NCBI GenBank assembly: GCA_001787535.1
Contig: MFXP01000003.1
Span: 1-45,743 of the forward strand
Direction of reading: 5' to 3'
Source of the DNA: Candidatus Peribacteria bacterium RIFCSPHIGHO2_01_FULL_51_35
Lineage (GTDB): Bacteria; Patescibacteriota; Gracilibacteria; Peribacterales; Peribacteraceae
DNA: 45,743 nucleotides
Below the pieces are notes generated by a model that worked only from the letters and a program-made list of their open reading frames with translations, made no database searches and was not told where the DNA came from. The first letter of the stretch is position 1. Each line of letters starts with the position of its first letter. This document shows, one piece after another, positions 297-43,710 of this stretch. Made by a program: the position numbers and the translations under genes.

Positions 297-430
297 CCCC
301 GCCCCTCGCTATGCTCGGGGAAAACTCAAGAAACAAATACCAAGATACAAAAAAGGATCGGCGATCTATGATCCATGTATCTTGTTTCTTGTTTCTTATT
401 TTTTCCGTCCTGAACGCAGTGAGGGACGGG
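297..430 (-). repeat. Palindromic insertion 1 inside 23S rRNA (7-bp unit arms)
   Basis: The variable hairpin between the conserved CAGCCCAAACC and GGTTGTAGGAC blocks is about 20 nt in Bacillus but about 130 nt here. Its core (about 327-411) is an inverted repeat. The left arm is built of degenerate 7-bp units (CAAGAAA, CAAATAC, CAAGATA, CAAAAAA) and the right arm of their complements (ATGTATC, TTGTTTC, TTGTTTC, TTATTTT). It would form a long AT-rich stem outside the conserved core. It resembles the rRNA intervening sequences that RNase III removes in some bacteria; whether it is excised cannot be told from sequence. Confidence 0.85.
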
Positions 431-569
431 TTTGGGCTGTTCCCTGTTCGCTCGCCACTACTAAGGGAATCTCATATGATTTCTTTTCCTCTGTTACGTG
501 AGATGTTTCAGTTCACAGAGTGACCTCCCAACCTCACCACTGATTTCGAAATATTGGGTGCGGAAATTT

Positions 570-655
570 CTTTCAGACATGAAGACATAAGCAATAAGAC
601 ACAAGCTGCAAAAATTTTCTTACAGCTTATCGCTTACGTCTTACATCTTTCCCAA
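570..655 (-). repeat. Palindromic insertion 2 inside 23S rRNA (7-bp unit arms)
   Basis: This is a second inverted repeat in another variable helix of 23S domain I. The left arm (576-609) carries units such as AAGACAT, AAGCAAT and AAGACAC. The right arm (618-651) carries CTTACAG, CTTATCG, CTTACGT and CTTACAT. The arms pair with one unit looped out, and the segment is about 120 nt longer than the equivalent region in Bacillus. It has the same architecture as insertion 1 but unrelated unit sequences, so it is not a simple duplication of it. Confidence 0.8.
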
Positions 656-967
656 AATTATGGAAATCAAAAGTAAGGTTGGGTCTGGGGACATAACTCC
701 CCAGGGGTTTCCCCATTCGGAGATCTCCGGTTAATAGCGCCTGCCTAGCGGCTCACCGAAGCTTATCGTAGCTGGCCACGTCCTTCGTCGGAATGCAAAG
801 TCGAGGCATCCATGTGATGCGATGAGTAACATTTTTCTTTGCCACGTACCACGCTTGCGCGCAGACGTGACGATACTGTTCATGTGCTACAACCTGAATA
901 CTCTTGAAAGAATATTCTGAGTGTTCACACGAATTGAAATTACAATAATCAATATTTTTCTATCGTA

Positions 968-996
968 GTTATGCACTTGAAGAAGATGTGCATAAC
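968..996. repeat. 9-bp inverted repeat upstream of 23S rRNA
   Basis: GTTATGCAC (968-976) and GTGCATAAC (988-996) form a perfect dyad with an 11-nt loop. A second weaker dyad (GAATACTC / GAATATTC, about 897-918) lies between it and the 23S 5' end. They could be operators or leader hairpins of the rRNA transcription unit. No convincing -35/-10 pair for the 23S gene could be assigned between them. Confidence 0.4.
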
Positions 997-1111
997 AGCC
1001 GTTGATGCCAAGGAACCGCGCCCCTTCCCATCGGATCTCTCCGGATAGAAAACCCTTCAACGCGTTCCACTTTCGCGGAACTTGCTCAGGGTTATCCCGC
1101 AACCGCGGGAT

Positions 1112-1141
1112 AAAAAAAGCGGGTGGCTCACGCACACCCGC
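1112..1141 (-). terminator. Rho-independent terminator upstream of 23S
   Basis: Stem GCGGGTG/CACCCGC with a 9-nt loop, followed on the minus strand by seven T residues. A further TCCCGC/GCGGGA hairpin (about 1094-1110) follows at once. Confidence 0.65.
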
Positions 1142-1207
1142 AGAACTCGTGTCGTCCCGCAAAGCGGGAGCTCGAATGCTACGGATGGTCGCGAAAAAAC
1201 ATAGTGC
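1112..1207 (-). ncRNA. Possible small RNA, about 95 nt, with own promoter and terminator
   Basis: On the minus strand a promoter-like pair, TTGACC (1236-1241) and TAAAAT (1214-1219) with a 16-nt spacer, predicts a start near 1207. About 70 nt further lies a strong intrinsic terminator (GCGGGTG stem, 1119-1141, then seven T). The short transcript would also contain a GCGGGA/TCCCGC hairpin (about 1153-1168). No open frame of note lies in it. It does not match 5S, 4.5S/SRP or 6S landmarks that I can recognise. Alternatively it is a terminated leader of the 23S transcription unit. Confidence 0.4.
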
Positions 1208-1213
1208 TGGAAG

Positions 1214-1241
1214 ATTTTAGAGGAGGAAAAAAGAGGGTCAA
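1214..1241 (-). promoter_or_regulatory. Promoter for the putative small RNA
   Basis: TTGACC, 16-nt spacer, TAAAAT on the minus strand, close to the sigma-70 consensus. Confidence 0.4.
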
Positions 1242-1287
1242 GGAGAAAAACCCATGAAATGACTGAAAAAGACGTCCTTCTTGCCAA

Positions 1288-1316
1288 TTGCGAGAAAGTG
1301 CCTCTTACGCTATAAT
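1288..1316 (+). promoter_or_regulatory. Promoter of the unknown gene pair, with a dyad over the -10 box
   Basis: TTGCGA (1288-1293), 17-nt spacer, TATAAT (1311-1316). A perfect 9-bp dyad, TTACGCTAT and ATAGCGTAA separated by 4 nt (1305-1326), covers the -10 box and the predicted start. A repressor binding there would block initiation; alternatively the dyad forms a hairpin at the 5' end of the mRNA. Confidence 0.65.
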
Positions 1317-1343
1317 AATAGCGTAAATACACATATACAAAAC

Positions 1344-1673
1344 ATGCTGAACGACTTCATAAACGGCGTCCGATCCTGTTTGAGCATCCCACAGTACATT
1401 GCGGATCGCTTGATTGCGGCAATGCAAAAGAGGAAGCCGGAAGAACGTGGCGTGATTGTGGATCGTTTGCAGCTCTGGAATGAGAAGTTGGCGCAAACGG
1501 ATGCGCAAGTGGAGAACGATCAACTGCAGCTTTTTTCCATTCTGGACAGAATGGAGCATGCCATGGATCGCGCAGTCCGAGCGGAAACAGAAACATCAGA
1601 ACATGCGAAGGAAACGGAGGACGCTGACAATTTGCTTTCCAATCTTTCACTTTCCCAACCTTCCCATGGGTAG
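1344..1673 (+). CDS. Hypothetical protein, 109 aa, first gene of a two-gene unit
   Basis: I do not recognise this family. The ATG at 1344 lies about 20 nt after the predicted transcription start of the 1288-1316 promoter and has no Shine-Dalgarno sequence. The protein is predicted to be helical throughout, with charged heptad-like stretches in the middle (residues 28-85) and an acidic, Ser/Leu-rich end. It has no signal peptide or membrane segment. Its stop codon (TAG, 1671-1673) overlaps the start of the next gene (ATG at 1666) in another frame, so the two are probably translationally coupled. An in-frame ATG also exists at 1281 but lies upstream of the promoter's -10 box and is unlikely. 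Confidence 0.65.
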   Translation: MLNDFINGVRSCLSIPQYIADRLIAAMQKRKPEERGVIVDRLQLWNEKLAQTDAQVENDQLQLFSILDRMEHAMDRAVRAETETSEHAKETEDADNLLSNLSLSQPSHG

Positions 1674-3840
1674 ATTTGGCATTTTCCCGCTGCGCGGCAG
1701 ATTCCAACCCGGTGATTCGGAACCAAACAACGAACAGCCGGAAGCACCAAAGAACAAGAAGCTTGATGAACAGGCACGCATCGCTGCACGCAAGAAATTG
1801 GATGAGAAGACAGCCCGTCTTTCCGAGAAATACAATACGCTGAAGAAGGATCTGGAGGCGAAAAACGACAAGTCGGGACTCGAAAAACTGCAGACCAAAT
1901 ACAAAGAGTTCTACGACCAATTCATGGCCATCCGCAATAGATACGATACGCACGTGGCCGAGCGCACGGACATCCTGACAAAGCTGGATGGTCTCGTAAC
2001 CGCAATCGAAACCGACTTGGACAAACCCGCTGCCCTGGAATCTGCCCTGCAAAAACTGGAACAGGAAACATCCACCTCTTTTCCTGCAGAGGAAACACTG
2101 CCCATGCCGAATGTGCAAGATTTCAAAAGCCTGAATGAGAACGCCGTGTTGCTCCCGGAACAACTTCCGGCGAATGGCATTTTCAAAATTCGAGGCTTGA
2201 ACGGTATTCTCGCCATTGGAAGGGGCGGCATCTATTCTCTCGTCATTGATCATGGAAGCTGGAGCGGTCAGACCATATACGAACTTGGAAAGGCGAAGAA
2301 TGTCACTACGTTTGGCACCGCGTTAACATTTGCCATGGAAGACGGAAGCATGCGAAAAGTGGAATTCGGTAACGATACGCTGGATGTAAAAATAATTGAG
2401 AAAGGCGATACGTTGGGTGATAAAGCAATAACCAGACAAATTGCTCGAGGCAGAAAACAACATCCTACTGAGGCGCCTAAACAAGCGGAAGCAACTGCAC
2501 CGGAAATCGCAGACAGCCCGAAGAAAGAAAAAGCTTCTCCTGAATCCGTCCGCACAGAGAACGCACCGGATCTTATGACAGCTGCAAGCAAAGTCATGGA
2601 AGCCGGCGGAGATGTGGCGCGAACTGCAACGAATATTGATGACAGGCTCGCGAAAAATGTCATTCTGCAAGCCGGAAACGACGCCATCAATGCAATGGGA
2701 AAATTGGGCGCCAACATTGATGCATATATGAATAAACCCAATGAATTGGCGCGAGAATCGTTCAACAGAAATGTTTTCGATTGCACACAGAAACTGGCGG
2801 CGCTGAGTGAGACCAAAATGCGGAATCTCCCCGAAGGCATCATGCAATTTCGCGATGCGGTGCAAAACGCAGCCATGGAACCTGCAGCAGTTTGGTTGAG
2901 AACAAAAGTGGAAAGCGTCCTGCAACTTGGCAATGATCTGAAGAACGACCTTACGGGAATGCCGGAGAACATGCGATCCAGCTTTTCACAATCTCTGATT
3001 CAAGAACTGGCAAACCTGACATTTAAACTCGCAGGCTTGAAGCAGGCAGGAGACGAGTTGGGATCCGCTCTCGCCAAGACCTCGGAAGGTGCAGGCAATG
3101 TCATTGGCAAGGCCTATGAAGCCACACTGCAACCCACGATTGGCGCAGCAGGAGATGTCGCGAAAACGGGAGTGGAAAGTGTGCAAAACATCGGGGGAAC
3201 AACCGCAGCAACGCTCCAAAGTTCACTCGTAAAGGAATGGCTGAATTTCAAAGCAACGACGGATGCGCAAACATCGCCGGATACATTGGCAAGAGAATCA
3301 AAAGCCAGGCACGACGCCAAGGCATTGGAAATCGCGAGCGGCTTACTGAGAGGAACGAACGTCCTGGATGCGACACCGAACGATGCATTGGATACGACTC
3401 CGCGGGAAGCGTTGAAGAAAGGCGCAGATGTTGCTGAACTGACAAAGGAAATGTTTTTGTCCGGAGTGGAGCCGAGAATTGAGAAATTCGGTCAAGAAGT
3501 GAAGAACACGCTGGAAACGATAGATGCTGCCAAGCAAGGGCTGGAAAATGTTGCTTCCACTACGACGGTGAAGGCAGGAGAGGCGCTGGTCGAAGCCAGA
3601 GGGAAACTCCAAACAAAACTGCAGGTTCTAGACAAAGAAGTGGCAGAATTGAGAGACAAAGCTGCAACATTGCCGAATGCCATCGGCATAACCATTGGAC
3701 AAGGTGCCTCGCAGCTTGCGATCAAACTCGGCATGGCAGGCAATGCCACCCTCAACACTACACCGCGCAGTGCGAGCGACCTCGCAAAACAAACCTGGAT
3801 GAAATTCAATACACCGGGATATTTGACCTTCAATCCTTAA
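1666..3840 (+). CDS. Hypothetical helical repeat-like protein, 724 aa
   Basis: No family recognised. The start is set at ATG 1666, overlapping the stop of the previous gene by 8 nt. The frame stays open upstream to about 1456, but that part is the shadow of the preceding gene. Residues 1-35 are basic/Pro-rich, and residues 38-150 are a Lys/Glu-rich coiled coil. About residues 180-255 form a small beta-rich domain with Gly-rich turns. From about 290 to 690 there are long Ala/Leu-rich amphipathic helices reminiscent of apolipoprotein or phasin-like helices. There is no signal peptide or clear membrane span. A structural, membrane-surface or scaffold role is possible but is inference. A strong terminator follows 19 nt after the stop. 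Confidence 0.75.
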   Translation: MGRFGIFPLRGRFQPGDSEPNNEQPEAPKNKKLDEQARIAARKKLDEKTARLSEKYNTLKKDLEAKNDKSGLEKLQTKYKEFYDQFMAIRNRYDTHVAERTDILTKLDGLVTAIETDLDKPAALESALQKLEQETSTSFPAEETLPMPNVQDFKSLNENAVLLPEQLPANGIFKIRGLNGILAIGRGGIYSLVIDHGSWSGQTIYELGKAKNVTTFGTALTFAMEDGSMRKVEFGNDTLDVKIIEKGDTLGDKAITRQIARGRKQHPTEAPKQAEATAPEIADSPKKEKASPESVRTENAPDLMTAASKVMEAGGDVARTATNIDDRLAKNVILQAGNDAINAMGKLGANIDAYMNKPNELARESFNRNVFDCTQKLAALSETKMRNLPEGIMQFRDAVQNAAMEPAAVWLRTKVESVLQLGNDLKNDLTGMPENMRSSFSQSLIQELANLTFKLAGLKQAGDELGSALAKTSEGAGNVIGKAYEATLQPTIGAAGDVAKTGVESVQNIGGTTAATLQSSLVKEWLNFKATTDAQTSPDTLARESKARHDAKALEIASGLLRGTNVLDATPNDALDTTPREALKKGADVAELTKEMFLSGVEPRIEKFGQEVKNTLETIDAAKQGLENVASTTTVKAGEALVEARGKLQTKLQVLDKEVAELRDKAATLPNAIGITIGQGASQLAIKLGMAGNATLNTTPRSASDLAKQTWMKFNTPGYLTFNP

Positions 3841-3858
3841 TACACTGTGCACTGCGAA

Positions 3859-3890
3859 ACAGAGCCGTCCTTTCGGACAGCTCTGTTTTT
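3859..3890 (+). terminator. Rho-independent terminator of the unknown gene pair
   Basis: ACAGAGC-c-GTCC stem with TTTC loop and GGAC-a-GCTCTGT, followed by five T. It ends 25 nt before the convergent rpoB stop codon. Confidence 0.85.
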
Positions 3891-3914
3891 ATATCGTGAT
3901 GCCGATCGCACGTC

Positions 3915-8755: not shown

Positions 8756-8857
8756 GGAGTACTGGAGTACTAGAATACTCGAATATTGGGGCAATATGAA
8801 GCGAATGGTGAATATTTCTAATCCCAATAGTCCAATACTCCATTATTCCAGTATTCT
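8756..8857. repeat. Tandem-unit palindrome (8-bp period) between divergent genes
   Basis: The left arm is built of units GGAGTACT, GGAGTACT, AGAATACT, CGAATATT, and the right arm of CCAATACT, CCATTATT, CCAGTATT, giving an imperfect inverted repeat of about 100 bp. It fills nearly the whole space between sodA and the FemAB gene. Its last unit supplies the TATTCT (8852-8857) that is the best -10 candidate for the rightward gene. Confidence 0.75.
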
Positions 8858-8865
8858 TGTTTCAA

Positions 8866-9834
8866 ATGGATATACGTCTTCTCACATCGGTGGAGGATCT
8901 CACCGCCTACGACCTGCGCGTGAAATCGCATCCGCAGGGTCAGCTGTGGCAGTCACTGGAATGGAAAAAATATCAGGAAGCCTTGGGACGAGACGTACGC
9001 ATCTATCAAGATGATCAATCGTCCGCTCTGGTCGTGATTGATCGTACTGCGTTTGGTCTCTCGACATGGGATGTGCCGCGCGGACCGCTTACGGCAATGG
9101 ACAATGGACAACTGACAATGAACAACGTGCTGGAATATATCGTTTCAGAAGCTCGAAAAGATAAATCGCTCAGCGTCTATTTCTCACCACTGAAACCCAT
9201 TGTCCATTGTCCATTGTCAGTTGTTCATTCCGTAAGGCATGAGCAGCCCCAAGCCACCCGCATCATTGATCTCACCAAATCGGAAGAAGAGATCCTCGCG
9301 CAGATGCATCAAAAAGGACGTTACAATATCAAGGTGGCGGAGAAGCATGGAGTTATGATCGAACAATCGCAAGACATCGATGCGTTCTACGAACTGATGA
9401 AGAAAACTTCCGAACGCGACCGGTTTGGAAAGCATTCAAAGAATCACTACGGAGCCATGCTCAAACATCTTCCAGGGGCATTCTTGATGATCGCTCAGCA
9501 CGACAAAAAGCCCATCGCAGGATTGATGGGAGTCCTGTGGAATGGGCTGGGCGTCTACTACTACGGAGCCTCTTCCCATGCCTACCGCGCCCTGATGGCA
9601 CCGTATGCCCTCCAGTGGGCTGCCATGCGGCACTGCAAGGCATCAGGATACCATTCTTATGACCTTTTCGGCATTGCCCCCCCATCCTCAGATTCCAGTC
9701 ATCCTTGGGTCGGCATCAGCGATTTTAAAGCCAAATTTGGAGGACAAGTAATCGAATATCCACCGGAGCGCGAGATCGTTATTCGTCCCCTTTTAAAGAC
9801 TCTTCTGAGTCTCAAACGAAAGTTATTTCGATAA
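8866..9834 (+). CDS. FemAB/FemX-family peptidyltransferase
   Basis: 322 aa. The FemAB family adds amino acids from aminoacyl-tRNA to the lipid II stem peptide to build peptidoglycan cross-bridges; it is a duplicated GNAT fold. Visible are the N-terminal FemAB pattern (QGQLWQSLEWKKYQEALG), a central KGRYNIKVAEKHG (typical K-x-R-x-N-I-x-x-A stretch), and the C-terminal YHSYDLFGIAPP and ISDFKAKFGG motifs that characterise FemX-like proteins. ATG 8866 is chosen because TATTCT lies 8 nt upstream; a TTG at 8857 is in frame but falls in the -10 box. Residues around 75-125 contain two arms of a 7-bp tandem-unit palindrome translated in frame. The exact substrate is not deducible. Confidence 0.85.
   Translation: MDIRLLTSVEDLTAYDLRVKSHPQGQLWQSLEWKKYQEALGRDVRIYQDDQSSALVVIDRTAFGLSTWDVPRGPLTAMDNGQLTMNNVLEYIVSEARKDKSLSVYFSPLKPIVHCPLSVVHSVRHEQPQATRIIDLTKSEEEILAQMHQKGRYNIKVAEKHGVMIEQSQDIDAFYELMKKTSERDRFGKHSKNHYGAMLKHLPGAFLMIAQHDKKPIAGLMGVLWNGLGVYYYGASSHAYRALMAPYALQWAAMRHCKASGYHSYDLFGIAPPSSDSSHPWVGISDFKAKFGGQVIEYPPEREIVIRPLLKTLLSLKRKLFR
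9095..9229 (+). repeat. 7-bp tandem-unit inverted repeat inside the FemAB gene
   Basis: Arm 1 (9095-9126) is CAATGGA, CAATGGA, CAACTGA, CAATGAA. Arm 2 (9198-9229) is its inverse, with CATTGTC units. The 70 nt between them encode ordinary FemAB-like sequence. Both arms are read through in frame. Confidence 0.8.
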
Positions 9835-15022: not shown

Positions 15023-16489
15023 TTAGAGCCTCCTGACCGTCTGTTCCCCTCCTTCGTCACGCACTTCATATCCCAATGCTTTGATCTGATCACGCAAACG
15101 ATCGGATGCGGCAAAATTTTTCGCAGCGCGCGCATTCTTTCTCTCCGCAAGAAGTGATTGCACGTCATTTGGGATCGATTGCTCTTCCGCCTCAAAACAG
15201 CCGAATGTTTTTCGCACGACGGATTGGAACACCTGAATTCCCGCTTTCTCTTGCGACGAAAGTGATGCACTGCGCGACCACGTCATGCAATCGAACACGA
15301 CGGCGAGCGCCGCAGGCGTATTCAAATCACTCTCCATCGCATCTCTAAATTTCTTCTCCCAGTCCCCTACCGTACTTACCGTACTTACCTTACTTTCCTT
15401 ACCTACCTTACCAACCGCGTTATCTATATCTCCACCCTCTTCCATCCACTCCAGAATTTTCCGCCGCGCCTTGTGCGCATCATCCAAACCTTTCTTCGTG
15501 AACTTGAGTTGCGTGCGGTAGTGCACCGAGAGAAGGTAATACCGAAGATCGAGCGGCGAGTACCCCATGGAAACAATATCGGGGACAGTTAACACATTGC
15601 CAAGACTCTTTGACATCTTGGTTTCACCTAAATCGATCCTCCTCTTATGAAGCCACAGTTTCACGAACGGTTTTTGCCCCGAGCATTCGCTCTGCGCGAT
15701 CTCGCATTCATGGTGCGGAAAAATATTGTCCTCACCGCCGGTGTGCAGGTCGATCTTCTCGCCCAAAAATTTTCTGCTCATGGCACTACACTCTATGTGC
15801 CAACCGGGGAATCCCGAGGTTGCATCTTCTCCTTCACTCTTGGAAATTTTTCCCGTCGCAAAATTCCAACGTAACAAGTGATGCGCGTTCGCTCCCACGC
15901 ATTTTTTCCACAATGCAAAATCCGCAGGATGTTTTTTTTCTTCTTTGATTTCCACGCGCGCACCAGCATTTAAATTTTCGACGGTATTGCCGGAAAGGGC
16001 TCCATACTGCGGAAAACTCGTTACAGAGAAATACACTCCATCCGACGTTTCGTACGCATTCCCCTTCTCCAATAATTCTCGAATGATGACGAGCATTTCC
16101 GGAACATTTTCCGTCGCGCGCGGACGGTGCGCAGGCTCCAGCATGTTGAGAGCCTTCTCATCTTCCAAATACATCGCTTCATATTTTTTTGCGATCGCGA
16201 GAGGATCTGTCTTTTCCTCACGCGCCTGTTTCTCCACTTTATCTTCTCCATCATCTTGGTCCTTTAAGAGGTGTCCGACATCGGTGATATTTTTCACATG
16301 CTTCACGTGGTATCCGCTCACCTCCAAAAAACGCCGCAGAAGATCCGCCATTAAGAAGGAAGAGTAATTTCCGATGTGCGGACGTCCGTAAACCGTGGGA
16401 CCGCACGTATACATGGTCACGAGTTTAGGATCGTGCGGTGCAAACACTTCTTCTTTCTTGGAGTAGGTGTTGTAGAGCTTGAGAGCCAT
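15023..16489 (-). CDS. cysS: Cysteinyl-tRNA synthetase
   Basis: Class I synthetase that charges tRNA-Cys, 488 aa. The ATG at 16489 (MALKLYNTYSKKEEV) matches the usual N-terminus; an upstream in-frame ATG is inside the preceding terminator. Features seen: zinc-ligand Cys plus HIGN-type signature (MYTCGPTVYGRPHIGN), zinc residues in GWHIECSAMS and GGEDNIFPHHECEIAQSE, and the KMSKS loop (GETKMSKSLGNVLT). The C-terminal helical tRNA-binding domain is short and ends with a typical RDQIKALGYEVRDEG. Between catalytic and C-terminal domains the residues KVGKVGKESKVSTVSTVG are encoded by a 9-bp tandem array. The start has no Shine-Dalgarno sequence and lies only 16 nt after the csrA terminator. Confidence 0.97.
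   Translation of the reverse strand: MALKLYNTYSKKEEVFAPHDPKLVTMYTCGPTVYGRPHIGNYSSFLMADLLRRFLEVSGYHVKHVKNITDVGHLLKDQDDGEDKVEKQAREEKTDPLAIAKKYEAMYLEDEKALNMLEPAHRPRATENVPEMLVIIRELLEKGNAYETSDGVYFSVTSFPQYGALSGNTVENLNAGARVEIKEEKKHPADFALWKKCVGANAHHLLRWNFATGKISKSEGEDATSGFPGWHIECSAMSRKFLGEKIDLHTGGEDNIFPHHECEIAQSECSGQKPFVKLWLHKRRIDLGETKMSKSLGNVLTVPDIVSMGYSPLDLRYYLLSVHYRTQLKFTKKGLDDAHKARRKILEWMEEGGDIDNAVGKVGKESKVSTVSTVGDWEKKFRDAMESDLNTPAALAVVFDCMTWSRSASLSSQEKAGIQVFQSVVRKTFGCFEAEEQSIPNDVQSLLAERKNARAAKNFAASDRLRDQIKALGYEVRDEGGEQTVRRL
15366..15417 (-). repeat. 9-bp degenerate tandem array inside cysS
   Basis: Six units of period 9 on the plus strand (CCTACCGTA, CTTACCGTA, CTTACCTTA, CTTTCCTTA, CCTACCTTA, then CCAACC). 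Translated in frame as a three-residue repeat (K/S-V-G/S/T). It resembles a single arm of the tandem-unit palindromes found elsewhere in the window. Confidence 0.75.
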
Positions 16490-20760: not shown

Positions 20761-20789
20761 AGAATACAGAAGGATGCCAATGAGACCAA
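20761..20789 (-). promoter_or_regulatory. Promoter of rnpA, -35 box inside a repeat arm
   Basis: TTGGTC (20784-20789), 17-nt spacer, TATTCT (20761-20766), then 9 nt to ATG. The -35 hexamer is one 9-bp unit of the palindromic element at 20777-20850. Confidence 0.65.
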
Positions 20790-20850
20790 TGAGACCAAGG
20801 AAATCGAAGAGATTCCCAAATCCTTGGTCTCATTGGTTTCCTTGGTTTCC
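20777..20850. repeat. Tandem-unit palindrome (9-bp period) between rnpA and gatC
   Basis: The left arm has AATGAGACC, AATGAGACC, AAGGAAATC units; the right arm (20821-20850) has CCTTGGTCT, CATTGGTTT, CCTTGGTTT. Closely related units recur at 27023-27087. It forms the whole divergent promoter region. Confidence 0.85.
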
Positions 20851-20877
20851 GGCGTCTCCTCCTAGTATGCTCTCCGC

Positions 20878-27022: not shown

Positions 27023-27087
27023 CGAGACCAAGGAAACCAAGGAGACCAAAGAATTATTCCTTGGTTTCCTTGGTCTCCTTGGTTTCA
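27023..27087. repeat. Tandem-unit palindrome (9-bp period) after ftsQ
   Basis: The left arm is GAGACCAAG, GAAACCAAG, GAGACCAAA; the right arm (27057-27087) is CCTTGGTTT, CCTTGGTCT, CCTTGGTTT. The arms are nearly perfectly complementary with a short loop. It begins 4 nt after the ftsQ stop codon and shares its units with the element at 20777-20850. Confidence 0.9.
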
Positions 27088-27091
27088 TTTT

Positions 27092-28033
27092 TTACCGATA
27101 GACGACTCTATCCGACAACCGGAGATCGATGTACCGCTCCACCTCTTCCTTCGGAATGGTTTCCAAAAAAAGTTTGAAGCGTGCCAAATGTTCGGCAAGC
27201 GGACTGCGGAGATCGAACCACAGATCGAACTCATCCGTGTGGAAGTGGAACTCGCGCGCACGCAGGAAGACAACGCGCCCCGTGACGGCCAATGCAAACT
27301 GATCGCGCAGCGCTTCTTCCGCCGCATACAGCACTTCCAACAGTTCCGGTTCCAACAGGATGGCTCCAGGCGTCGGGCGCACTCCCCAGTCCACGATGCT
27401 GATGACGGGAAGATCCGAGGCCGTCGCGGCAGAAGGATGCGTGACATAGCGGCCGTTCACCGTAAGGTAGTCCTCTGTCGAAATCACAACCGCACCCGAT
27501 GCGTTCGTCGCCTCTCCTGCGAGCGACGGCTCCTCCGCTTCCGGCATCTCGATCGTGAGCTTCGCAATGATCTGTTCCAAGCGCATGGTGACAACCAGAC
27601 GAGAAGGATAGTCTTTATCCACATCGATGTCCGTGGTATCGGCGGCGGATGCACGCACGAGTTCCCGCACTTCCTGCGCAGTGAGGAAGAGGAGATGCCT
27701 GCCGAAGAGCGGCGCCAGCGCGCGTTGGACTTTCTCCGCGTCAATGCGGAGATCCGATCGCACCACGCGAATCTCGCGCACCTGCACAATCGGGAAAAAG
27801 AGGAAAAGCGCGAGTCCCAGGAGCACAAATCCGATGCCGAGCAGAATGAGCCACCGCTGGAACATCTTCCGCCAGTCGGAAAAAATCTTTTCCGTACGAC
27901 GCACAAAACGCCGCACGCGTTCGTGACGTTTTTTTGCATGGCGCTGATGGCGGCGCTCGGCGAAGGCGCGCGTTTGTCTTGTGACGGGACGATTGAAACG
28001 ACGCGGCAAGCGGACACTCCGTTTAAGGGGCAT
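27092..28033 (-). CDS. ftsQ: FtsQ/DivIB-like cell division protein
   Basis: 313 aa. Very basic cytoplasmic N-terminus (about 1-58, Arg/His-rich), one transmembrane helix (about 60-82, WLILLGIGFVLLGLALFLFF), then a POTRA-like domain beginning VQVREIRVVRSDLRIDAEKV and including LVVTMRLEQIIAKL. A DivIB-type beta domain follows. Order and length fit FtsQ, which links early and late division proteins at the septum. Assignment is by architecture; sequence conservation in this family is low. TACAAT (28041-28046) lies 7 nt before ATG 28033. Usual ftsA/ftsZ or mur neighbours are absent. Confidence 0.75.
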   Translation of the reverse strand: MPLKRSVRLPRRFNRPVTRQTRAFAERRHQRHAKKRHERVRRFVRRTEKIFSDWRKMFQRWLILLGIGFVLLGLALFLFFPIVQVREIRVVRSDLRIDAEKVQRALAPLFGRHLLFLTAQEVRELVRASAADTTDIDVDKDYPSRLVVTMRLEQIIAKLTIEMPEAEEPSLAGEATNASGAVVISTEDYLTVNGRYVTHPSAATASDLPVISIVDWGVRPTPGAILLEPELLEVLYAAEEALRDQFALAVTGRVVFLRAREFHFHTDEFDLWFDLRSPLAEHLARFKLFLETIPKEEVERYIDLRLSDRVVYR

Positions 28034-28124: not shown

Positions 28125-28152
28125 GTAGGGGCGACGCATGCGTCGCCCCTAC
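28125..28152. repeat. Perfect 28-bp GTAG...CTAC dyad
   Basis: GTAGGGGCGACGCA followed directly by its exact complement. With the preceding element it fills the region between ftsQ and the glycosyltransferase. Confidence 0.9.
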
Positions 28153-29294: not shown

Positions 29295-29316
29295 GTAGTG
29301 AGTGAAATGGCGTCCT

Positions 29317-29403
29317 CTCTCCCTGTAGGGAGAGAGACAGAGAGAGGGTTATGCGAGAGTTTTTTATAACCCTCTCCCCGTCCCTCCCCCTTGAGGGGGA
29401 GGG
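29317..29403. repeat. CTCTCCC hairpins after the glycosyltransferase
   Basis: Two hairpins: CTCTCTCCC/GGGAGAGAG (29317-29338) and CCCTCCCCC/GGGGGAGGG (about 29382-29403). Between them GAGAGGGTTAT pairs with ATAACCCTCTC, giving nested structure. Same class as the element at 9846-9900; may terminate the upstream transcript. Confidence 0.7.
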
Positions 29404-29461
29404 AACGTCATACAGACTCTTCCTGAGGTTTATGGAAATACGGGTGTAAAATCCATTCATA

Positions 29462-36648: not shown

Positions 36649-36669
36649 TCTCATTAATTTAATCATCGC

Positions 36670-39154: not shown

Positions 39155-39392
39155 GGGATACAGAGAGTCTCCTGGATTGACAAGTAGACTATACGATATC
39201 GCTTTCACTGATTTTCCGCTTCGGGCAGCGAAGAATCGAGCATCTTTGGTGCTCACTCTTTTGCCCTAGCAGAAGCCATTTTTCGCTTCCTGCTGCCATT
39301 GGAAGAATCAAAGATTCCATTTTATGGCTTGCATCAGCCTTTTTTTGGTAGAAGACTTTGAGGTGATCCTATTTCCTTCCCCACTTCCTCTT
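39155..39392 (+). other. Upstream region of the HU gene
   Basis: About 240 bp with no gene. TTGACA occurs at 39178-39183 but no -10 lies at normal spacing (TATACG follows after only 7 nt). Several small hairpins are present: CTTC/GAAG, GAGC/GCTC, AGCAG/CTGCT, GGAATC/GATTCC. The promoter of the HU gene could not be fixed. Confidence 0.3.
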
Positions 39393-39668: not shown

Positions 39669-39693
39669 TTCTTTGAATCGTACTTAAGAAAAA

Positions 39694-39714
39694 GCCTCCG
39701 TAAGGAGGTTTTTT
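39694..39714 (+). terminator. Terminator of the HU gene
   Basis: GCCTCC/GGAGG stem with GTAA loop followed by six T. Confidence 0.85.
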
Positions 39715-39718
39715 CGTG

Positions 39719-39800
39719 GATGCAAAGGAAACAAAGGAAGCAGAGGAAACAAAGGAATTTTCTTCTGAATCTTTTGTTTCCTCTGTTTCCTTTGCGTCTT
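39719..39800. repeat. Tandem-unit palindrome (9-bp period) before khpB
   Basis: The left arm is GCAAAGGAA, ACAAAGGAA, GCAGAGGAA, ACAAAGGAA; the right arm (39768-39800) is CTTTTGTTT, CCTCTGTTT, CCTTTGCGT. It lies between the HU terminator and the khpB -10 box. Confidence 0.9.
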
Positions 39801-39836
39801 CCCCGTATTTATAACTTCCGCTATCCTGCCTCGGCT

Positions 39837-40376
39837 ATGAACGAAGCATTGCTCAAAGATATTCTTACGGGCCTTCTTACATTCCTGAATCTCCCTGCGG
39901 ATGGACTCACTGTGAAAACGGAAGAGGACGGACTGACGCGCGTGGATATTCTTTCGTCCAACCCCAGCCGCATTATTGGCTGGCATGGGGAAACATTGAA
40001 TGCCTTGCAGCATTTGGCCAAGTCGATGCTCCGCGCAAAAGAGAAACTGGAGCGCACGCCGTTCGTCGTGCTCGACGTCGATGGCTACCGCAAGATGCAG
40101 GAAGAGAAAGTCTGCAAGATCGCCGAACAGAAAGCGGACTTTGTGCGCCGCACGGGCAACCGTGTTGCACTGCAGCCCATGAGTCCGTACTTCCGCCGCA
40201 TCGTGCACTTGTATGTGGCAAACAACCCGCAGCTCCAAGATTTGATGACAGAGAGCGTGGGGGAAGGAGACTACCGCCAGATAGTCATGCGCATGAAAGA
40301 AGAGAAAGGAGAAAGGAGTGAAGAACTTTCACCGGTTATCTCGCAGGATGATGGACTGGAAAATTTGGATGTGTAA
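39837..40376 (+). CDS. khpB: KhpB/Jag RNA-binding protein (KH-R3H)
   Basis: 179 aa. KH domain in residues about 30-75 with the GxxG loop in RIIGWHGETLNALQHL, followed by the R3H domain (about 95-150), including Arg and His of the motif in LQPMSPYFRRIVHLYV. The N-terminal Jag-N domain seen in Firmicutes is short or missing. KhpB binds RNA and affects cell elongation and division in Gram-positives. Here it is unlinked from yidC, with which it is often clustered. TATCCT (39822-39827) lies 9 nt before the ATG. The last 25 residues are acidic and variable. Confidence 0.92.
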   Translation: MNEALLKDILTGLLTFLNLPADGLTVKTEEDGLTRVDILSSNPSRIIGWHGETLNALQHLAKSMLRAKEKLERTPFVVLDVDGYRKMQEEKVCKIAEQKADFVRRTGNRVALQPMSPYFRRIVHLYVANNPQLQDLMTESVGEGDYRQIVMRMKEEKGERSEELSPVISQDDGLENLDV

Positions 40377-40420
40377 CGACAATGTTCAATTTCTAATTTT
40401 CATTGATCATTGATTCAATA

Positions 40421-40648
40421 CTAGAATTCAAACATCGAATCGACCAATCTCCTTTCGAACGCTTCGATCAACTTTTCTTCCAGTGGTTGGTTTGCACGTG
40501 TGCGATCTTCAACCACTTCAAAGAGATCGCGCACGGTTTCTTCTCTGATTGCTCCTGAACGAAAAAAGCTCCGGAAGGCATTCGGATTTGGCACCCTATA
40601 AAGTTCCAGAATCCTCTCAGCGCGATCTATGGTCATTTTGCCTGGCAT
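40421..40648 (-). CDS. Hypothetical protein, 75 aa, downstream of dnaJ
   Basis: Not recognised. Helical, charged, with no signal or membrane segment; begins MPGKMTIDRAERILELYRV and ends RRLVDSMFEF. ATG 40648 or 40636 could be the start. Same strand as dnaJ but separated by 88 bp that contain a hairpin, so probably a separate or weakly coupled gene. Confidence 0.55.
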   Translation of the reverse strand: MPGKMTIDRAERILELYRVPNPNAFRSFFRSGAIREETVRDLFEVVEDRTRANQPLEEKLIEAFERRLVDSMFEF

Positions 40649-40705
40649 GGGAAAAGCCTAATGACAGAAAGAAGAACAGGCAAATCGATTGTTATTCTAT
40701 TAATC

Positions 40706-40723
40706 GCGGGCAAGAATGCCCGC
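40706..40723 (-). terminator. Hairpin after dnaJ
   Basis: GCGGGC/GCCCGC stem with a 6-nt loop, 13 nt past the dnaJ stop codon. The T-tract is weak, so termination may be partial. Confidence 0.5.
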
Positions 40724-40735
40724 TCTTATTTTGCC

Positions 40736-41806
40736 TTATTTTTCTAATTTCTTCCATTCTTCGAGCAATTTTCTTTCTGCGCGAGACAGCTTCTTCGGAA
40801 TCTCTATCTCCACTGTGACGTAGTGATCCCCCATACGGCTGCTATTTAAGAGGGGCAGGCCTTTGCCCTTCAAACGGAACACCTGCGCCGGTTGTGTGCC
40901 TTCTGGAATACGAAGCGTCACGGAGCCTTGGAGTGTCTCTACGTCGATCTCCGTGCCAAGGATGGCATCCAGAGCGCTGATGGTTGTTATTGTCCGAACA
41001 TCCGTGCCATCGCGCACGAAGCGAGGATCTTCTTTTACGCGCACGTGCACGTACAAGTCTCCTGCGGATTTCCCTTGGCGGCCGGCATCACCCTCGCCAC
41101 GGAGCCGCAGTGACTGTCCGTCTTCTATGCCCGCAGGAATATCGATACGAAGATCTTCTTGAATCGGCCTGCGTCCTTCGCCTTTGCATTCTTTACAGGG
41201 CTTCTCCGGAACTTTCCCGGATCCTTTGCATTGGGGACAGACAAAGCGTTGGCGGATCATCCCAAAGAACGATTGTGTTTGGCGTTCCACTTGGCCCGTA
41301 CCGCCGCACTCCGTGCAGCGCGTGAGCGCGGAACCTTTTTCTGCGCCGGAGCCGCCGCAGGTTTCGCAGGATCGATTCCTCTCGATGCGCACGGTTTTTG
41401 CCGCACCTTTCAAAACTTCATGGAGATCGATGGCGATCTCCATCTCGCGGTCTGCCCCGCGCTCTTCTCGCTGCGCTCCACCGCGGGCACCGCCGAAGAA
41501 ACTTTCGAAGATGTCCGAGAAATTTCCGCCCTCGGTGAAGCCGGAGAAATCAAATCCTCCAGCACCGCCTCCAAAGCCGCCCTGGCCGTTGCCCGTGGTT
41601 CCGAACTGATCGTACTGTTGTTTCTTTTTTGCATTGCCCAAAATTTCATACGCCTCGTTCACTTCCTTGAATTTTTGCTCGGCAGCTTTGTCCCCTTTGT
41701 GTTTATCCGGATGCAATTCTTTGCTCATTTTTCGGTACGCCTGCTTGATGTCGTCCACCGAGGCGTTTTTTTGGATGCCTAAGACATCGTAATAGTTCTT
41801 TGCCAT
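40736..41806 (-). CDS. dnaJ: Chaperone protein DnaJ
   Basis: Hsp40 co-chaperone that delivers substrates to DnaK and stimulates its ATPase; 356 aa. J-domain at 1-70 with HPD in KELHPDKHKGD, then a Gly/Phe-rich linker (GGFGGGAGGFDFSGF). Four zinc-binding CxxCxGxG repeats: CETCGGSG, CTECGGTG, CPQCKGSG, CKECKGEG. Two C-terminal substrate-binding domains follow. It is complete type I DnaJ. TATTCT (41813-41818) is 6 nt from the ATG, so leaderless. dnaK and grpE are not neighbours. Confidence 0.98.
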   Translation of the reverse strand: MAKNYYDVLGIQKNASVDDIKQAYRKMSKELHPDKHKGDKAAEQKFKEVNEAYEILGNAKKKQQYDQFGTTGNGQGGFGGGAGGFDFSGFTEGGNFSDIFESFFGGARGGAQREERGADREMEIAIDLHEVLKGAAKTVRIERNRSCETCGGSGAEKGSALTRCTECGGTGQVERQTQSFFGMIRQRFVCPQCKGSGKVPEKPCKECKGEGRRPIQEDLRIDIPAGIEDGQSLRLRGEGDAGRQGKSAGDLYVHVRVKEDPRFVRDGTDVRTITTISALDAILGTEIDVETLQGSVTLRIPEGTQPAQVFRLKGKGLPLLNSSRMGDHYVTVEIEIPKKLSRAERKLLEEWKKLEK

Positions 41807-41855
41807 ACGGAGAGAATAGCAAAGAACTTGATTCTAAGTTTATTATGATTTTTTT

Positions 41856-41884
41856 GTAGAGACGCGCGATTCGCGCGTCTCTAC
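41856..41884. repeat. GTAGAGACGCGCG dyad upstream of dnaJ
   Basis: GTAGAGACGCGCG-att-CGCGCGTCTCTAC, a perfect 13-bp dyad; second copy of 36574-36602. Confidence 0.92.
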
Positions 41885-41967
41885 GGAGCACGGATGGATT
41901 TGCACTTTCACAGCCCCTTTTTGGCTTGGTGGAGATGCAAGGAAGCCTTTTAGATAAGCCAAAAATA

Positions 41968-41976
41968 TGCTATAAT
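41968..41976 (+). promoter_or_regulatory. Extended -10 promoter of the TSP3 protein gene
   Basis: TGC-TATAAT with the ATG only 6 nt downstream (41983). The -35 is weak, as expected for an extended -10. Confidence 0.65.
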
Positions 41977-41982
41977 GGTCGG

Positions 41983-43029
41983 ATGGTTTTCACTCAAAAA
42001 AACATCAGAAGCACGCTCTTGATTCTGGGTGTTTTCGCACTCCTGGGAGCGCTGTGGTTTGCGAGAACACATGGCTTGTCGTCCCTTCTGCAGGGACGCG
42101 TGCTGACGACGGAAACAAAACTGGAAATCCCCTGGCGCACGTTCGATCCGCCCGAACTCTTGAGCGGCGCAACCATCCCTTCGGATACGCATGTCATCAT
42201 TCACATTCCCTTGGAAATAAAACGCATCGCTCGCAAGGTGCTCTTTGGGGACCAAGGAAATCGCATCCGATACTGGGGATATTGTTTCCCGGAAGACTAC
42301 GATCCACGCAATATCGCACACAGAGCTCCCGGGTTCCCCGGAACCATGTTCCTGTCGGAAGCGGAGCGCAATGAACGTGAAGCGCAACGCCAGCGTTTGT
42401 TTCCGCAGTTCACCATTCACAATCCTCCGACTAGTAAAGAATTGACAATGCAGCAAAAAAAAATCAAAGGACAGATCCGTCATCAGCAGGAAATTTTCTA
42501 CGGAGGAACCACCTGTTACGTGATGACGGAACAGCCGCTGCCTGTTGGATCGGATGATGACAATGATCGGCTGAATGCGTCGGAAGAGTCGGCGAACCGA
42601 ACGGATCCGCAGAACCACGACACCGATGGCGACGGCATTGCCGACGGTGTGGAGGTGCATTCATTCAAAACCGACCCCCTCCGCAGAGATACGGATACGG
42701 ACGGCCTTATCGACGGAATCGAAGATAGAAACAGAAACGGCAAAATAGACCAAGGGGAGACGAGTCCGTTCGAAAAAGATTCGGATCATGACGGACTCTG
42801 TGATGGTTACTGTCGCATCATCATTGGAGGTCGCCTGTGCAGTGAATTCTCCACGACGAAAAACTGCGTCCCCGGCGTGCAGGTGAAATGGCGCGGGGAG
42901 GACAAGAACCTCAACGGAAAAGTGGATACCGGCGAATCGAATCCGCTGAAAACCGATTCGGACGGCGATGGAATCCTGGACGAGCAAGAACACTATAACT
43001 GTCTCCTGGAGAAGAAAACTGATTGTTAA
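41983..43029 (+). CDS. Membrane-anchored protein with thrombospondin-type-3 calcium repeats
   Basis: 348 aa. Residues 10-27 form a signal anchor (STLLILGVFALLGALWFA). The middle part (about 45-195) is of unknown fold with three Cys. The C-terminal half has Asp-rich calcium loops of the TSP3 type: DTDGDGIADGVE, DTDTDGLIDGIE, a DxNxNG variant (DRNRNGKID), DSDHDGLCDGYC, DKNLNGKVD, DSDGDGILDEQE. Such repeats are common in exported proteins of Patescibacteria. Several Cys near the end may form disulfides. Start by the extended -10 box; an upstream in-frame ATG at 41926 precedes that promoter. The next gene starts 28 bp later. Confidence 0.85.
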   Translation: MVFTQKNIRSTLLILGVFALLGALWFARTHGLSSLLQGRVLTTETKLEIPWRTFDPPELLSGATIPSDTHVIIHIPLEIKRIARKVLFGDQGNRIRYWGYCFPEDYDPRNIAHRAPGFPGTMFLSEAERNEREAQRQRLFPQFTIHNPPTSKELTMQQKKIKGQIRHQQEIFYGGTTCYVMTEQPLPVGSDDDNDRLNASEESANRTDPQNHDTDGDGIADGVEVHSFKTDPLRRDTDTDGLIDGIEDRNRNGKIDQGETSPFEKDSDHDGLCDGYCRIIIGGRLCSEFSTTKNCVPGVQVKWRGEDKNLNGKVDTGESNPLKTDSDGDGILDEQEHYNCLLEKKTDC

Positions 43030-43045
43030 AAAGTGTCATTTCCTC

Positions 43046-43051
43046 TATACT
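43046..43051 (+). promoter_or_regulatory. -10 box of the LAPTG-tail protein gene
   Basis: TATACT, 6 nt before the second of two adjacent ATG codons (43058). Confidence 0.5.
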
Positions 43052-43057
43052 CGTATG

Positions 43058-43600
43058 ATGAACAAATATCACACAACGCTCACGGTACTCGGCATGCTGG
43101 CCGCTCTCGCGCCGCATGCGCATGCGTATGTCACGCCTGAGCAAGTTTTGCGGCAGAATGAGTACGAGGATTTTATTCCTTCGTATGAAGACAGTTACGA
43201 CACGTACGAGGAAGATCACGAAGCGGCCACTGAGCCTTCTGGCATCCGCTATTCGAAGGGCACTCCGATCTATCGCGTACAGCAATCGAAGGGCCCGCAC
43301 ATGACGCTGAAAAAATATGCCCCTGTCGCAGAAGAGGAGGAACCATTGATCGACGAGAGTGTCGGCTTGGACACTGAGGAAGAGGAAAGCACGAACATCA
43401 CACTGCAGTTGGATGCGAAGACACTCAGACTGTTGGAACGTCTTACGAGTCCGAAATCCGCCAATGTCTTGAGTCCGACGGCACACAGCGGTGCGCCGCT
43501 TGCTCCCACAGGCCCCGCGACCGTCATTGCCATGGGAGTGATGGGAGTGGCGATCTATGCCACGATGCGAAGGGCGAGACGTATGGGGGCGAGGGGGTAG
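43058..43600 (+). CDS. Exported acidic protein with LAPTG-type sorting tail
   Basis: 180 aa. Signal peptide (about 1-24, TVLGMLAALAPHAHA-Y). A mature part rich in Glu, Asp and Tyr follows (about 25-75, EYEDFIPSYEDSYDTYEEDH), and the C-terminus reads PLAPTGPATVIAMGVMGVAI then YATMRRARRMGARG. The triad of LAxTG pentapeptide, hydrophobic helix and basic tail is the arrangement of sortase substrates (LAxTG is known for class E sortases). No sortase gene lies in the window. The stop codon TAG falls inside a palindromic element. An ATG at 43055 is equally possible as start. Confidence 0.75.
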   Translation: MNKYHTTLTVLGMLAALAPHAHAYVTPEQVLRQNEYEDFIPSYEDSYDTYEEDHEAATEPSGIRYSKGTPIYRVQQSKGPHMTLKKYAPVAEEEEPLIDESVGLDTEEEESTNITLQLDAKTLRLLERLTSPKSANVLSPTAHSGAPLAPTGPATVIAMGVMGVAIYATMRRARRMGARG

Positions 43601-43710
43601 GGAGTAGGAGATAGGAAGTAGAAAGTTCTCATCTGCAAATTTGCCGGTATTTTACTTTCTCGCAAAGAATTCATAGCAACTACCCCCTACTCCCTACCCC
43701 CTATTTCCTG
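43593..43710. repeat. Tandem-unit palindrome (7-bp period) at the recJ 5' end
   Basis: The left arm (43593-43625) is GGGGGTA, GGGAGTA, GGAGATA, GGAAGTA; the right arm (about 43680-43708) is CTACCCC, CTACTCC, CTACCCC, CTATTTC. It supplies the stop codon of the upstream gene and lies immediately before, or in, the start of recJ. Confidence 0.85.

What the first reader, a model, noticed from the sequence alone, without database searches (positions are those of the whole stretch)
327..43710. A family of palindromes whose arms are degenerate tandem units of 7, 8 or 9 bp
At least eight elements share one architecture: 30-40 bp arms made of 3-5 imperfect copies of a short unit, followed by the inverted copy. 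Period 7: 327-411 and 576-651 (both in 23S), 9095-9229, 43593-43710. Period 8: 8756-8857. Period 9: 20777-20850, 27023-27087, 39719-39800, plus a single arm at 15366-15417. The unit sequences differ between elements, so what is conserved is the structure rather than the sequence, apart from the related pair at 20777 and 27023. Single-arm heptamer arrays resemble the STRR repeats known in cyanobacteria. The inverted arrangement, the presence in rRNA and in coding frames, and the variable period are unusual. They could arise by template switching, or be products of an unknown amplifying activity.
Basis: partly seen in the sequence, partly recalled or inferred. Interest (0 to 1): 0.85.

Follow-up and report, generated by a model that had tools for sequence, protein, structure and literature searches.

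The report
Paired inverted seven-base repeat arrays
Short stretches of imperfectly repeated 7-, 8- or 9-letter DNA words, nearly always facing each other as an inverted pair, are scattered through this bacterium's genome, and in one gene the words differ from species to species on both sides together, by an unknown process.

Summary
In 635.8 kb of this genome 38 palindromes have both arms periodic (7-9 bp); shuffles give 0 in 1.9 Mb. Starting from tandem arrays alone, 33 of 38 non-coding arrays have an inverted partner within 130 nt, none only a direct one. 'Unit sequences differ' is incomplete: words recur genome-wide, and one class forms the same palindrome in several phyla. Simple inverted duplication is not supported: in this lineage arms share words, not word order. 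The best test is FemAB (window 8857-9834): among 46 orthologues, two loops flanking a 21-codon segment carry arrays whose words differ between genomes but match between loops (19 genomes with both; 0 of 10,000 permutations); 18 have none. Three of these words are commonest in the genomes that carry them. The architecture is known from Xanthomonas GGGNATC repeats and the Nostoc trnL P6b stem; breadth, period and pairing rules, and word turnover in coding sequence look new. Mechanism unresolved; I favour in-place fold-back/slippage copying of about one word at a time (0.4).

The parts
319..411 (.). Period-7 (AAGAAAC class) palindrome inside the 23S rRNA gene, at a helix tip
   Evidence: 134 nt between anchors where 23 of 31 aligned 23S rows have 14-26 nt
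576..651 (.). Weaker period-7 palindrome (AAGACAT/AAGCAAT) inside the 23S rRNA gene
   Evidence: 188 nt between anchors where 25 of 31 rows have 43-60 nt
1..836 (-). 5' part of the 23S rRNA gene (Rfam RF02541 positions 1-587), cut by the contig end
8755..8856 (.). Period-8 convergent pair (GGAGTACT class) filling the spacer between a superoxide dismutase gene (-) and the FemAB gene (+)
8857..9834 (+). FemAB-family gene that carries two convergent period-7 arrays in frame
9095..9126 (+). 5' array of the FemAB pair (ACAATGG words)
9197..9229 (-). 3' array of the FemAB pair (CCATTGT words)
15366..15417 (.). Single period-9 array (GGTAAGTAC class on the - strand) in the CysS gene, codons 358-375, between the catalytic and DALR domains
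20770..20858 (.). Period-9 palindrome (CCAATGAGA/CCAAGGAAA) upstream of gatC
27023..27089 (.). Period-9 palindrome (CCAAGGAAA) immediately downstream of the stop codon of the gene 27092-28033 (-)
39718..39800 (.). Period-9 palindrome (CAAAGGAAA) at the 5' end of the R3H-domain (Jag/KhpB-like) gene
43592..43703 (.). Period-7 palindrome (GTAGGGA/TAGGGGG) at the 3' end of the gene 43055-43600

Best explanation
These are convergent pairs of short tandem arrays that evolve in place. Shown: non-coding arrays of 7-, 8- or 9-bp words occur mostly as inverted pairs; the 5' arm is usually purine-rich; arms share vocabulary but, in this lineage, not word order; words are genome-specific and shared by many loci; at FemAB the words of both arms differ between genomes while the 21 codons between them stay recognisably homologous. 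Inferred: during replication or repair the nascent strand folds back and re-primes on the opposite arm (or slips on its own arm), copying about one word (7-9 nt) at a time. That makes both arms share words without sharing order, keeps the pair inverted and fixes the period. Products survive where a hairpin is harmless: spacers just after stop codons, rRNA helix tips, protein loops or domain linkers. Not explained by this step alone: why one genome uses the same few words at many loci; some spread between loci (ectopic template switching or recombination between palindromes, or an unknown enzyme) must be added.
For: Pairing: 33 of 38 non-coding own arrays inverted, 0 direct-only; over nine genomes 112 of 138 non-coding arrays inverted, 1 direct-only. 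Vocabulary shared within a genome at FemAB: word distance 1.16 within vs 3.04 between genomes, n=19, 0 of 10,000 permutations; arm complementarity 11.8 vs 6.0 +- 0.4, n=38. Order not mirrored. One-sided states: 7 of 46 FemAB loci have an array called in one loop only and no complementarity (one of them, G008, is partly complementary below the cut). Period 7 in coding loops although 6 or 9 would keep frame more easily. Within-arm slippage is visible in several of 12 Pseudomonas loci: one arm uniform, the other degenerate. Different sites with intact flanks.
Against: Genome-wide dialects are not predicted by purely local copying. At FemAB the middle segment is on average less conserved than the rest (0.48 vs 0.55 amino-acid identity; correlation 0.26) and drops to 0.38 between two same-genus species with different words, so replacement of the whole block by recombination is not excluded. 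Three FemAB loci have arrays in both loops below the complementarity cut; in two of them (G046, G205) the words are unlike. The purine-rich 5' arm does not follow from fold-back copying. Elements in other phyla show some mirrored order.
Confidence: 0.4

Rival explanations
1. Mobile hairpin (REPIN- or MITE-like): whole palindromes are copied to new sites by a transposase acting in trans, then decay.
For: Dispersed multi-copy classes with genome dialects; in Pseudomonas the same spacers hold this element in one species and other hairpins in others; the genome has eight Y1_Tnp matches.
Against: At FemAB arrays flank a homologous coding segment, so no whole palindrome was inserted there. Word order differs between arms. 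Palindromes do not flank the Y1_Tnp genes; within 1.5 kb of eight matches only one locus (L100, a partial match) has any: a period-8 element about 0.8 kb and a period-7-like one about 1.4 kb away.
Confidence: 0.17
2. Selection for an RNA hairpin (intercistronic or 3'-end stem, rRNA helix extension): arrays grow by slippage and only pairs able to fold are kept.
For: Median distance to the neighbouring stop codon 7 bp (31 gene ends; other inverted repeats of the genome 36.5 bp, 74 ends); helix tips of 23S; pairing in any register needs no mirrored order; the Nostoc trnL P6b stem behaves so (PMC4476775, passages).
Against: 18 of 46 FemAB orthologues have no such arrays, so no hairpin is needed there; coding sequence of a conserved gene is an unlikely place for an essential stem; own elements are not enriched between convergent genes (3 of 33).
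Confidence: 0.22
3. Terminal addition: an enzyme adds a genome-specific word to both 3' ends at a break, and the ends are then joined, as at eukaryotic head-to-head telomere fusions (comparison recalled).
For: Predicts convergent pairs with one word in a fixed orientation, independent arm lengths, unmirrored order, one-sided cases, dialects and fixed periods, all seen. Purine-rich 5' arms in 34 of 34 own period-7 and -9 partnered arrays.
Against: The homologous segment of over 60 nt between FemAB arms does not fit a single break. RVT_1 reverse transcriptases were not found in seven array-bearing genomes searched (G016, G021, G040, G189, G061, G062, G063), so a telomerase-like enzyme is not general. 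Many words per genome would need many templates. Orientation is not fixed for every class (a Thioalkalivibrio period-9 class).
Confidence: 0.13
4. Chance, assembly artefact or ordinary slippage without structure.
For: Heptanucleotides are the most abundant class of longer simple repeats in most bacterial genomes and slippage has been proposed (PMC4679880 and PMC4692102, passages, both citing Mrazek 2007, which I did not see).
Against: 0 periodic palindromes in 1.9 Mb of shuffles, 0 arrays in 100 kb of E. coli; present in the named strain Thioalkalivibrio denitrificans ALJD; slippage alone gives single or direct arrays, not inverted pairs.
Confidence: 0.02

Closest known systems
GGGNATC / GGGGA(C/T)T heptamer repeats of Xanthomonas and Nostoc (Rehm et al. 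2015, PMC4692102; passages and Discussion read)
   Same: Degenerate heptamer arrays, mostly non-coding and close to ORFs; 70 (Xcc) and 75 (Xac) cases of two arrays close together in convergent orientation, one on each strand; unit with constant and variable positions.
   Different: One G-rich word type per organism, treated as quadruplex formers; here many words, periods 7, 8 and 9, many phyla, also rRNA and coding loops, and different words in both arms between related genomes.
Nostoc trnL intron P6b stem-loop (PMC3488679 and PMC4476775; passages read)
   Same: Stem arms made of degenerate heptanucleotide repeats; two very different word classes (TDNGATT, NNTGAGT) at one locus with repeated shifts between them; origin stated as unknown.
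   Different: A single RNA site inside an intron; the present elements are dispersed and the word tracks a genome-wide pool.
STRR repeats of cyanobacteria (name recalled; heptanucleotides of Calothrix are mentioned in PMC4692102)
   Same: Tandem degenerate heptamers.
   Different: Recalled as single-direction arrays; here 33 of 38 non-coding own arrays have an inverted partner.
TAACTGA direct repeats of Beggiatoaceae (PMC4679880; passages read)
   Same: Intergenic heptamers shared by distant phyla, mechanism unknown.
   Different: Direct repeats (169 sets against one indirect repeat), mostly upstream of start codons.
REP/REPIN elements with RAYT (Y1) transposases (recalled)
   Same: Short intergenic palindromes in multi-copy families; hairpins that look like them occupy the same spacers in Pseudomonas.
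   Different: No link to Y1_Tnp genes here; arms are tandem words that turn over in place.
rRNA intervening sequences / helix-tip insertions (recalled)
   Same: Two of the palindromes extend 23S helix tips, as insertions present in some relatives and absent in others.
   Different: The same architecture occurs outside rRNA genome-wide.

Membership tests
Convergent heptamer repeats as in Xanthomonas | Two heptamer arrays in convergent orientation close together, mostly non-coding | tested here: met
   GGGNATC itself was not searched as a word
Convergent heptamer repeats as in Xanthomonas | Four G-tracts / quadruplex potential | tested here: not met
   By inspection of sequences printed: most words (ACAAGNN, AATGACC, GTTATATT, ACAATGG) lack G-tracts of three; a few (GTAGGGA, GGGGGTG) have them
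STRR | Tandem degenerate heptamers in one direction (recalled) | tested here: not met
   Inverted pairs are the rule; periods 8 and 9 also occur
REP/REPIN | Palindromes flanking a cognate Y1 (RAYT) gene | tested here: not met
   none flanks the 8 Y1_Tnp matches; the nearest lies about 0.8 kb from a partial match
REP/REPIN | Whole-element mobility to new sites | tested here: inconclusive
   Presence/absence at intact flanks, but arms turn over in place at FemAB
MITE / transposon | Terminal inverted repeats with target-site duplication | not tested
   No relatives close enough were at hand to define junctions
rRNA intervening sequence | Insertion at an rRNA helix tip, absent in relatives | tested here: met
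   for 319-411 and 576-651 only; processing not testable
Telomerase-like RT product | Reverse transcriptase in array-bearing genomes | tested here: not met
   RVT_1 in 5 of 14 genomes (this one included); not found in 7 array-bearing ones
Retained RNA stem (as Nostoc P6b) | Arms complementary within a genome while words differ between genomes | tested here: met
   FemAB

The most novel reading that the evidence does not exclude
Many unrelated bacteria have an undescribed activity, not a known reverse transcriptase, that writes short genome-specific words of 7, 8 or 9 nt in a preferred orientation at paired DNA sites and keeps rewriting them, so that dozens of loci per genome, including loops of conserved proteins and helix tips of ribosomal RNA, change dialect together as lineages diverge.
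Probability: 0.12. Interest if true: 0.95.

Novelty: new variant of a known kind. Interest (0 to 1): 0.72.

Why it matters
Heptamer over-representation in bacteria has been noted for years without a settled mechanism (PMC4692102, in 2015, says no detailed literature on heptameric repeats was available). These data give rules a mechanism must meet: periods 7-9, inverted pairing, mostly purine-rich 5' arms, shared words without shared order, genome dialects, and words that differ in both arms around a homologous coding segment. The FemAB locus is a natural experiment across 46 genomes in which mutation models can be tested; a cultured array-rich strain such as Thioalkalivibrio denitrificans makes laboratory tests possible.

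Tried and rejected
Rejected: arms as exact inverted duplicates in this lineage (weak mirroring in the cross-phylum set, 149 vs 135.0 +- 3.6 of at most 306; a first version of this test with a fixed register showed no signal, 81 vs 78.9 +- 3.9). Rejected: REP/RAYT membership. Rejected as general: reverse-transcriptase templating (a diverged enzyme or a missing contig could hide one). Considered without test: integron attC sites, DNA-uptake sequences. A text search for six repeat strings found 0 papers. The paired comparison of 3' against 5' gene distance was not significant (p=0.08 own; 0.30 other genomes), so I claim only closeness to stop codons. Enrichment between convergent genes: not seen.

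Limits: gene calls come from a simple script, not a curated annotation. The own sample is 53% of the genome, and some stretches were picked because earlier hits lay there, so densities may be inflated; the pairing and period counts do not depend on this as directly. One search searched periods 6-10, periods 4-15, also found 1 array at 14 and 5 at 15 in the own non-coding set. Low-complexity arrays were dropped before counting (E. coli part) and their number was not kept. One search counts include coding arrays and put period 14 with 7. In one search elements in loci too short or without a long ORF were left out (74 elements in 73 loci used, 24 of them coding or at a locus end). FemAB: 46 loci were used; the weaker paralogue-like rows and the genomes with only such rows were not. 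In one search the mirror test used 12 informative FemAB loci; the word test used the 19 with arrays called in both loops. In one search only 10 of 30 loci had a matching left flank. Hit numbers count overlapping registers of one array, and include the FemAB locus; their reversed-pattern controls gave 0-1 per genome and strand. One search's printout was cut.
Full report
What was checked. The window is contig C3 of a 1.196-Mb genome in 18 contigs, 99% complete. Named contigs with the same kind of element include Peregrinibacteria and Peribacteria, which suggests, but does not prove, that the window is from that group. Each listed place was read and tested: inverted repeats, tandem repeats, folds, rRNA. 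All nine hold what was described; 576-651 is the weakest and 15366-15417 is a single arm.

More than chance. The window has 9 ungapped inverted repeats of score 14 or more within 200 bp; ten local dinucleotide shuffles have 0. In 635,751 bp of the genome there are 113, and in 38 both arms share a period (6-10 searched; 7, 8 or 9 found); shuffles give 2 and 0 in 1,907 kb. The same call on relatives: G012 5 periodic of 11, G013 3 of 6, G018 1 of 6, G004 1 of 2, G025 (another family) 0 of 1; none in their shuffles. Because that selects for inverted repeats, I also began from tandem arrays only; 55 arrays, at periods 6 (2, coding), 7 (25), 8 (8) and 9 (20), none at 10; of the 38 that are intergenic or at gene edges, 33 have an inverted partner within 130 nt and none a direct partner only; of 17 coding arrays 6 have one. 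One shuffle of the sample has no arrays. With periods 4-15 allowed, 138 non-coding arrays in nine genomes: 112 with an inverted partner, 1 with a direct partner only. By genome: own 38 of 44, Bacteroidetes SZAS-41 17 of 18, Thioalkalivibrio 32 of 41, G021 16 of 19, G013 5 of 8, G012 3 of 5, G004 0 of 2, one Pseudomonas (240 kb) 1 of 1, G025 no arrays in 60 kb. 118 of the 138 have period 7, 8 or 9. E. coli K-12, 100 kb: no arrays.

Words and orientation. Units recur: ACAAGNN, AATGACC, AAGTGCC, GACAATG, TAGGRAN at period 7; GTTATATT and GTTTGCTT at 8; CCGAAGAAT, AAGGAAACC, GGTAGGTAC at 9. The 5' arm of partnered arrays is purine-rich in 19 of 19 own period-7 and 15 of 15 own period-9 arrays, 26 of 28 Thioalkalivibrio period-7 and 9 of 9 G021 period-9 arrays, but in only 6 of 11 SZAS-41 period-7 arrays, 5 of 8 G021 period-8 arrays and neither single period-7 array of G004 and G013; own period-8 5' arms are keto-rich in 7 of 7 and purine-rich in 2 of 7. 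A Thioalkalivibrio period-9 class occurs in both orientations.

Distribution. A pattern for the ACAAGNN palindrome with the two variable bases left free hit 75 stretches in a collection of 84,980 species: Gammaproteobacteria including the named strains of Thioalkalivibrio denitrificans, Pseudomonas grimontii and P. rubra, Bacteroidetes, Acidobacteria, Omnitrophota, Clostridia and several CPR groups. In those loci the reverse arm order occurs 0 times against 76 elements read. Whole-genome counts on 12 of the source genomes found it in 10, with the reversed-pattern control at 0 in all 12. A class-free scan of 571.5 kb of these loci, the selected elements left out, found 36 further periodic palindromes (27 of period 7, 6 of 8, 2 of 9, 1 of 11) with many other words, and 0 in one shuffle.

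Where they sit. By a simple gene finder (82% coding), 22 of 38 periodic palindromes are intergenic, 12 at gene edges, 4 coding. Median distance to the neighbouring stop codon is 7 bp (31 gene ends), against 36.5 bp for other inverted repeats of the genome (74 ends), and 9 bp for the ACAAG class elsewhere (56 ends). They are not enriched between convergent genes (3 of 33). In 23S rRNA, at reference positions 272-290 (coordinates of L066), 23 of 31 rows have 14-26 nt and this genome 134; at 129-189, 25 of 31 rows have 43-60 nt and this genome 188 (G002 and probably G036 badly anchored at the first site). Relatives' 23S inserts often hold such palindromes with other words, related words at several sites of one gene in G021.

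Presence and absence. Around the P. grimontii element, 10 of 30 fetched Pseudomonas loci have a matching left flank: the palindrome is in one, two have 33-34 bp, seven have 45-150 bp of other sequence, several with other hairpins of the REP type (label recalled). At two loci of another Pseudomonas, relatives have other hairpins or other sequence by eye; at one, one of four relatives has a related palindrome. In several of 12 Pseudomonas copies one arm is a long uniform array and the other short and degenerate, so arms expand separately.

Are arms copies of each other? In 75 ACAAG-class elements the variable bases match between arms only slightly more than with units permuted (149 vs 135.0 +- 3.6, maximum 306; aligned from the outer ends 110 vs 89.7 +- 5.8). 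By alignment, word order is not mirrored in the own genome (period 7: 296 vs 303 +- 7.6; period 8: 97 vs 102.3 +- 2.8; period 9: 270 vs 288.4 +- 7.3), in G021 (period 8: 115 vs 122.4; period 9: 204 vs 214.7) or in FemAB (209 vs 210.1 +- 5.9, 12 loci); it is in Thioalkalivibrio period 7 (406 vs 387.7 +- 6.0) and SZAS-41 period 7 (187 vs 153.7 +- 6.8), and not clearly in SZAS-41 period 8 (100 vs 91.6 +- 5.2).

FemAB as a natural experiment. The palindrome at 9095-9229 lies in a FemAB-family gene. Matches are in 56 of 57 family genomes; 46 loci were compared. Two loops flank a 21-residue segment. By the thresholds used, 16 loci have arrays called in both loops that are complementary, 2 more have one called array and a complementary partner, 3 have arrays in both loops below the complementarity cut (in two of these, G046 and G205, the words are unlike), 6 have an array called only in the 3' loop, 1 only in the 5' loop, 18 have no period-7 array. 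All called arrays have period 7 except one at 9 (G013). Words differ between genomes: ACAATGG here, GGAAAGT in G003, GGATTAC in G040, AATTGAG in G201 and AGTGAAA in G209 (these last three are one genus). Complementarity of the two loops within a genome is 11.8 against 6.0 +- 0.4 across genomes (38 loci; maximum of 5,000 permutations 8.0). Word distance is 1.16 within and 3.04 between genomes (19 loci; 0 of 10,000 permutations). Against a simple reading: the middle segment is somewhat less conserved than the rest (0.48 vs 0.55 identity, correlation 0.26) and quite diverged (0.38) between G040 and G209, so replacement of the whole block by recombination remains possible.

Dialects. Two and a half copies of three FemAB words were sought with up to 2 mismatches in the same 12 genomes; hits count overlapping registers. 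GGATTAC: 25 hits in G040, 8 in its congener G201, 0-1 in the other ten. GGACAAT: 21 in this genome, 27 in G016 (the two of the 12 whose FemAB carries it), 6 in G003, 0-1 in the other nine. GGAAAGT: 46 in G003 (9 exact), 0-17 in the others (94 in all, 3 exact, about a third being the GGAAAAT variant), so this word is less specific. Reversed-pattern controls gave 0-1 per genome and strand. So the words at FemAB come from, or feed, a genome-wide pool.

Enzymes looked for. Eight Y1_Tnp matches are in this genome but the palindromes do not flank them. RVT_1 was found in 5 of 14 genomes, this one included, and not in seven array-bearing ones.

What is known. Rehm et al. 2015 (PMC4692102; passages and Discussion) describe convergent pairs of GGGNATC arrays in Xanthomonas, close to ORFs, without assigned function. 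The Nostoc trnL P6b stem is built of heptanucleotide words of two classes with repeated shifts, origin unknown (PMC3488679 and PMC4476775; passages). TAACTGA repeats of Beggiatoaceae are direct (PMC4679880; passages). In the Peribacteria genome paper (PMC4736985) the word stem 'palindrom' does not occur (passages). Nine searches for a general description showed none in their listings of the held library, which lacks most subscription journals.

Judgement. The architecture is known in two places; the breadth, the rules and the word turnover in both arms of a coding gene are, as far as these searches show, not described. The step I commit to, fold-back and slippage copying of about one word at a time, explains pairing, period and shared words without shared order, but not dialects or the purine tendency; confidence 0.4.

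Noticed in passing
L075-L095 (23S loci of the family): 23S genes of this family carry large inserts, for example roughly 500-990 nt at reference position 1961/1962 in several, and others at helix tips; the longest match spans about 5.5 kb (G045).
   Followed up: partly
window 29307-29411; L004 17901-18064: A different, GC-rich inverted repeat (ATGACGTTCCCTCCCCC...ATAACCCTCTC) at two places of the genome, not of the tandem-arm type.
   Followed up: no
L009 7516, L011 6015, L012 5346, L013 7015; variant L008 18595: A recurring exact palindrome TCCACTTTCTTGTG/CACAAGAAAGTGGA (one variant) spread over the own genome.
   Followed up: no
window 28125-28152, 41856-41884; L003, L008, L009, L011, L016: Short GTAG-headed hairpins (GTAGGGGCGACGCA, GTAGAGACGCGCGA) that look like REP sequences (recalled); other short exact hairpins, not the tandem-armed ones, lie beside some Y1_Tnp matches (L099, L102, L103).
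   Followed up: partly
L033 17290-17403 and L089 1511-1628: The same outer GC hairpin shell (CGCCTCGCTTYGCGAGGCG...CGCACCGCGAAGCGGGGCG) at one 23S site in G012 and G021 with different inner heptamer words.
   Followed up: partly
NZ_AP027888.1 313-461 (hit H1): A 2,750-bp record filed as an E. coli plasmid carries an annotated 23S rRNA gene 80% identical over about 147 bases to this window; possibly contamination.
   Followed up: no
L179-L187, L189 and L222-L250 (Pseudomonas spacers): The same intergenic spacers hold different hairpin families in different Pseudomonas species, as if certain gene ends attract or require a hairpin.
   Followed up: partly
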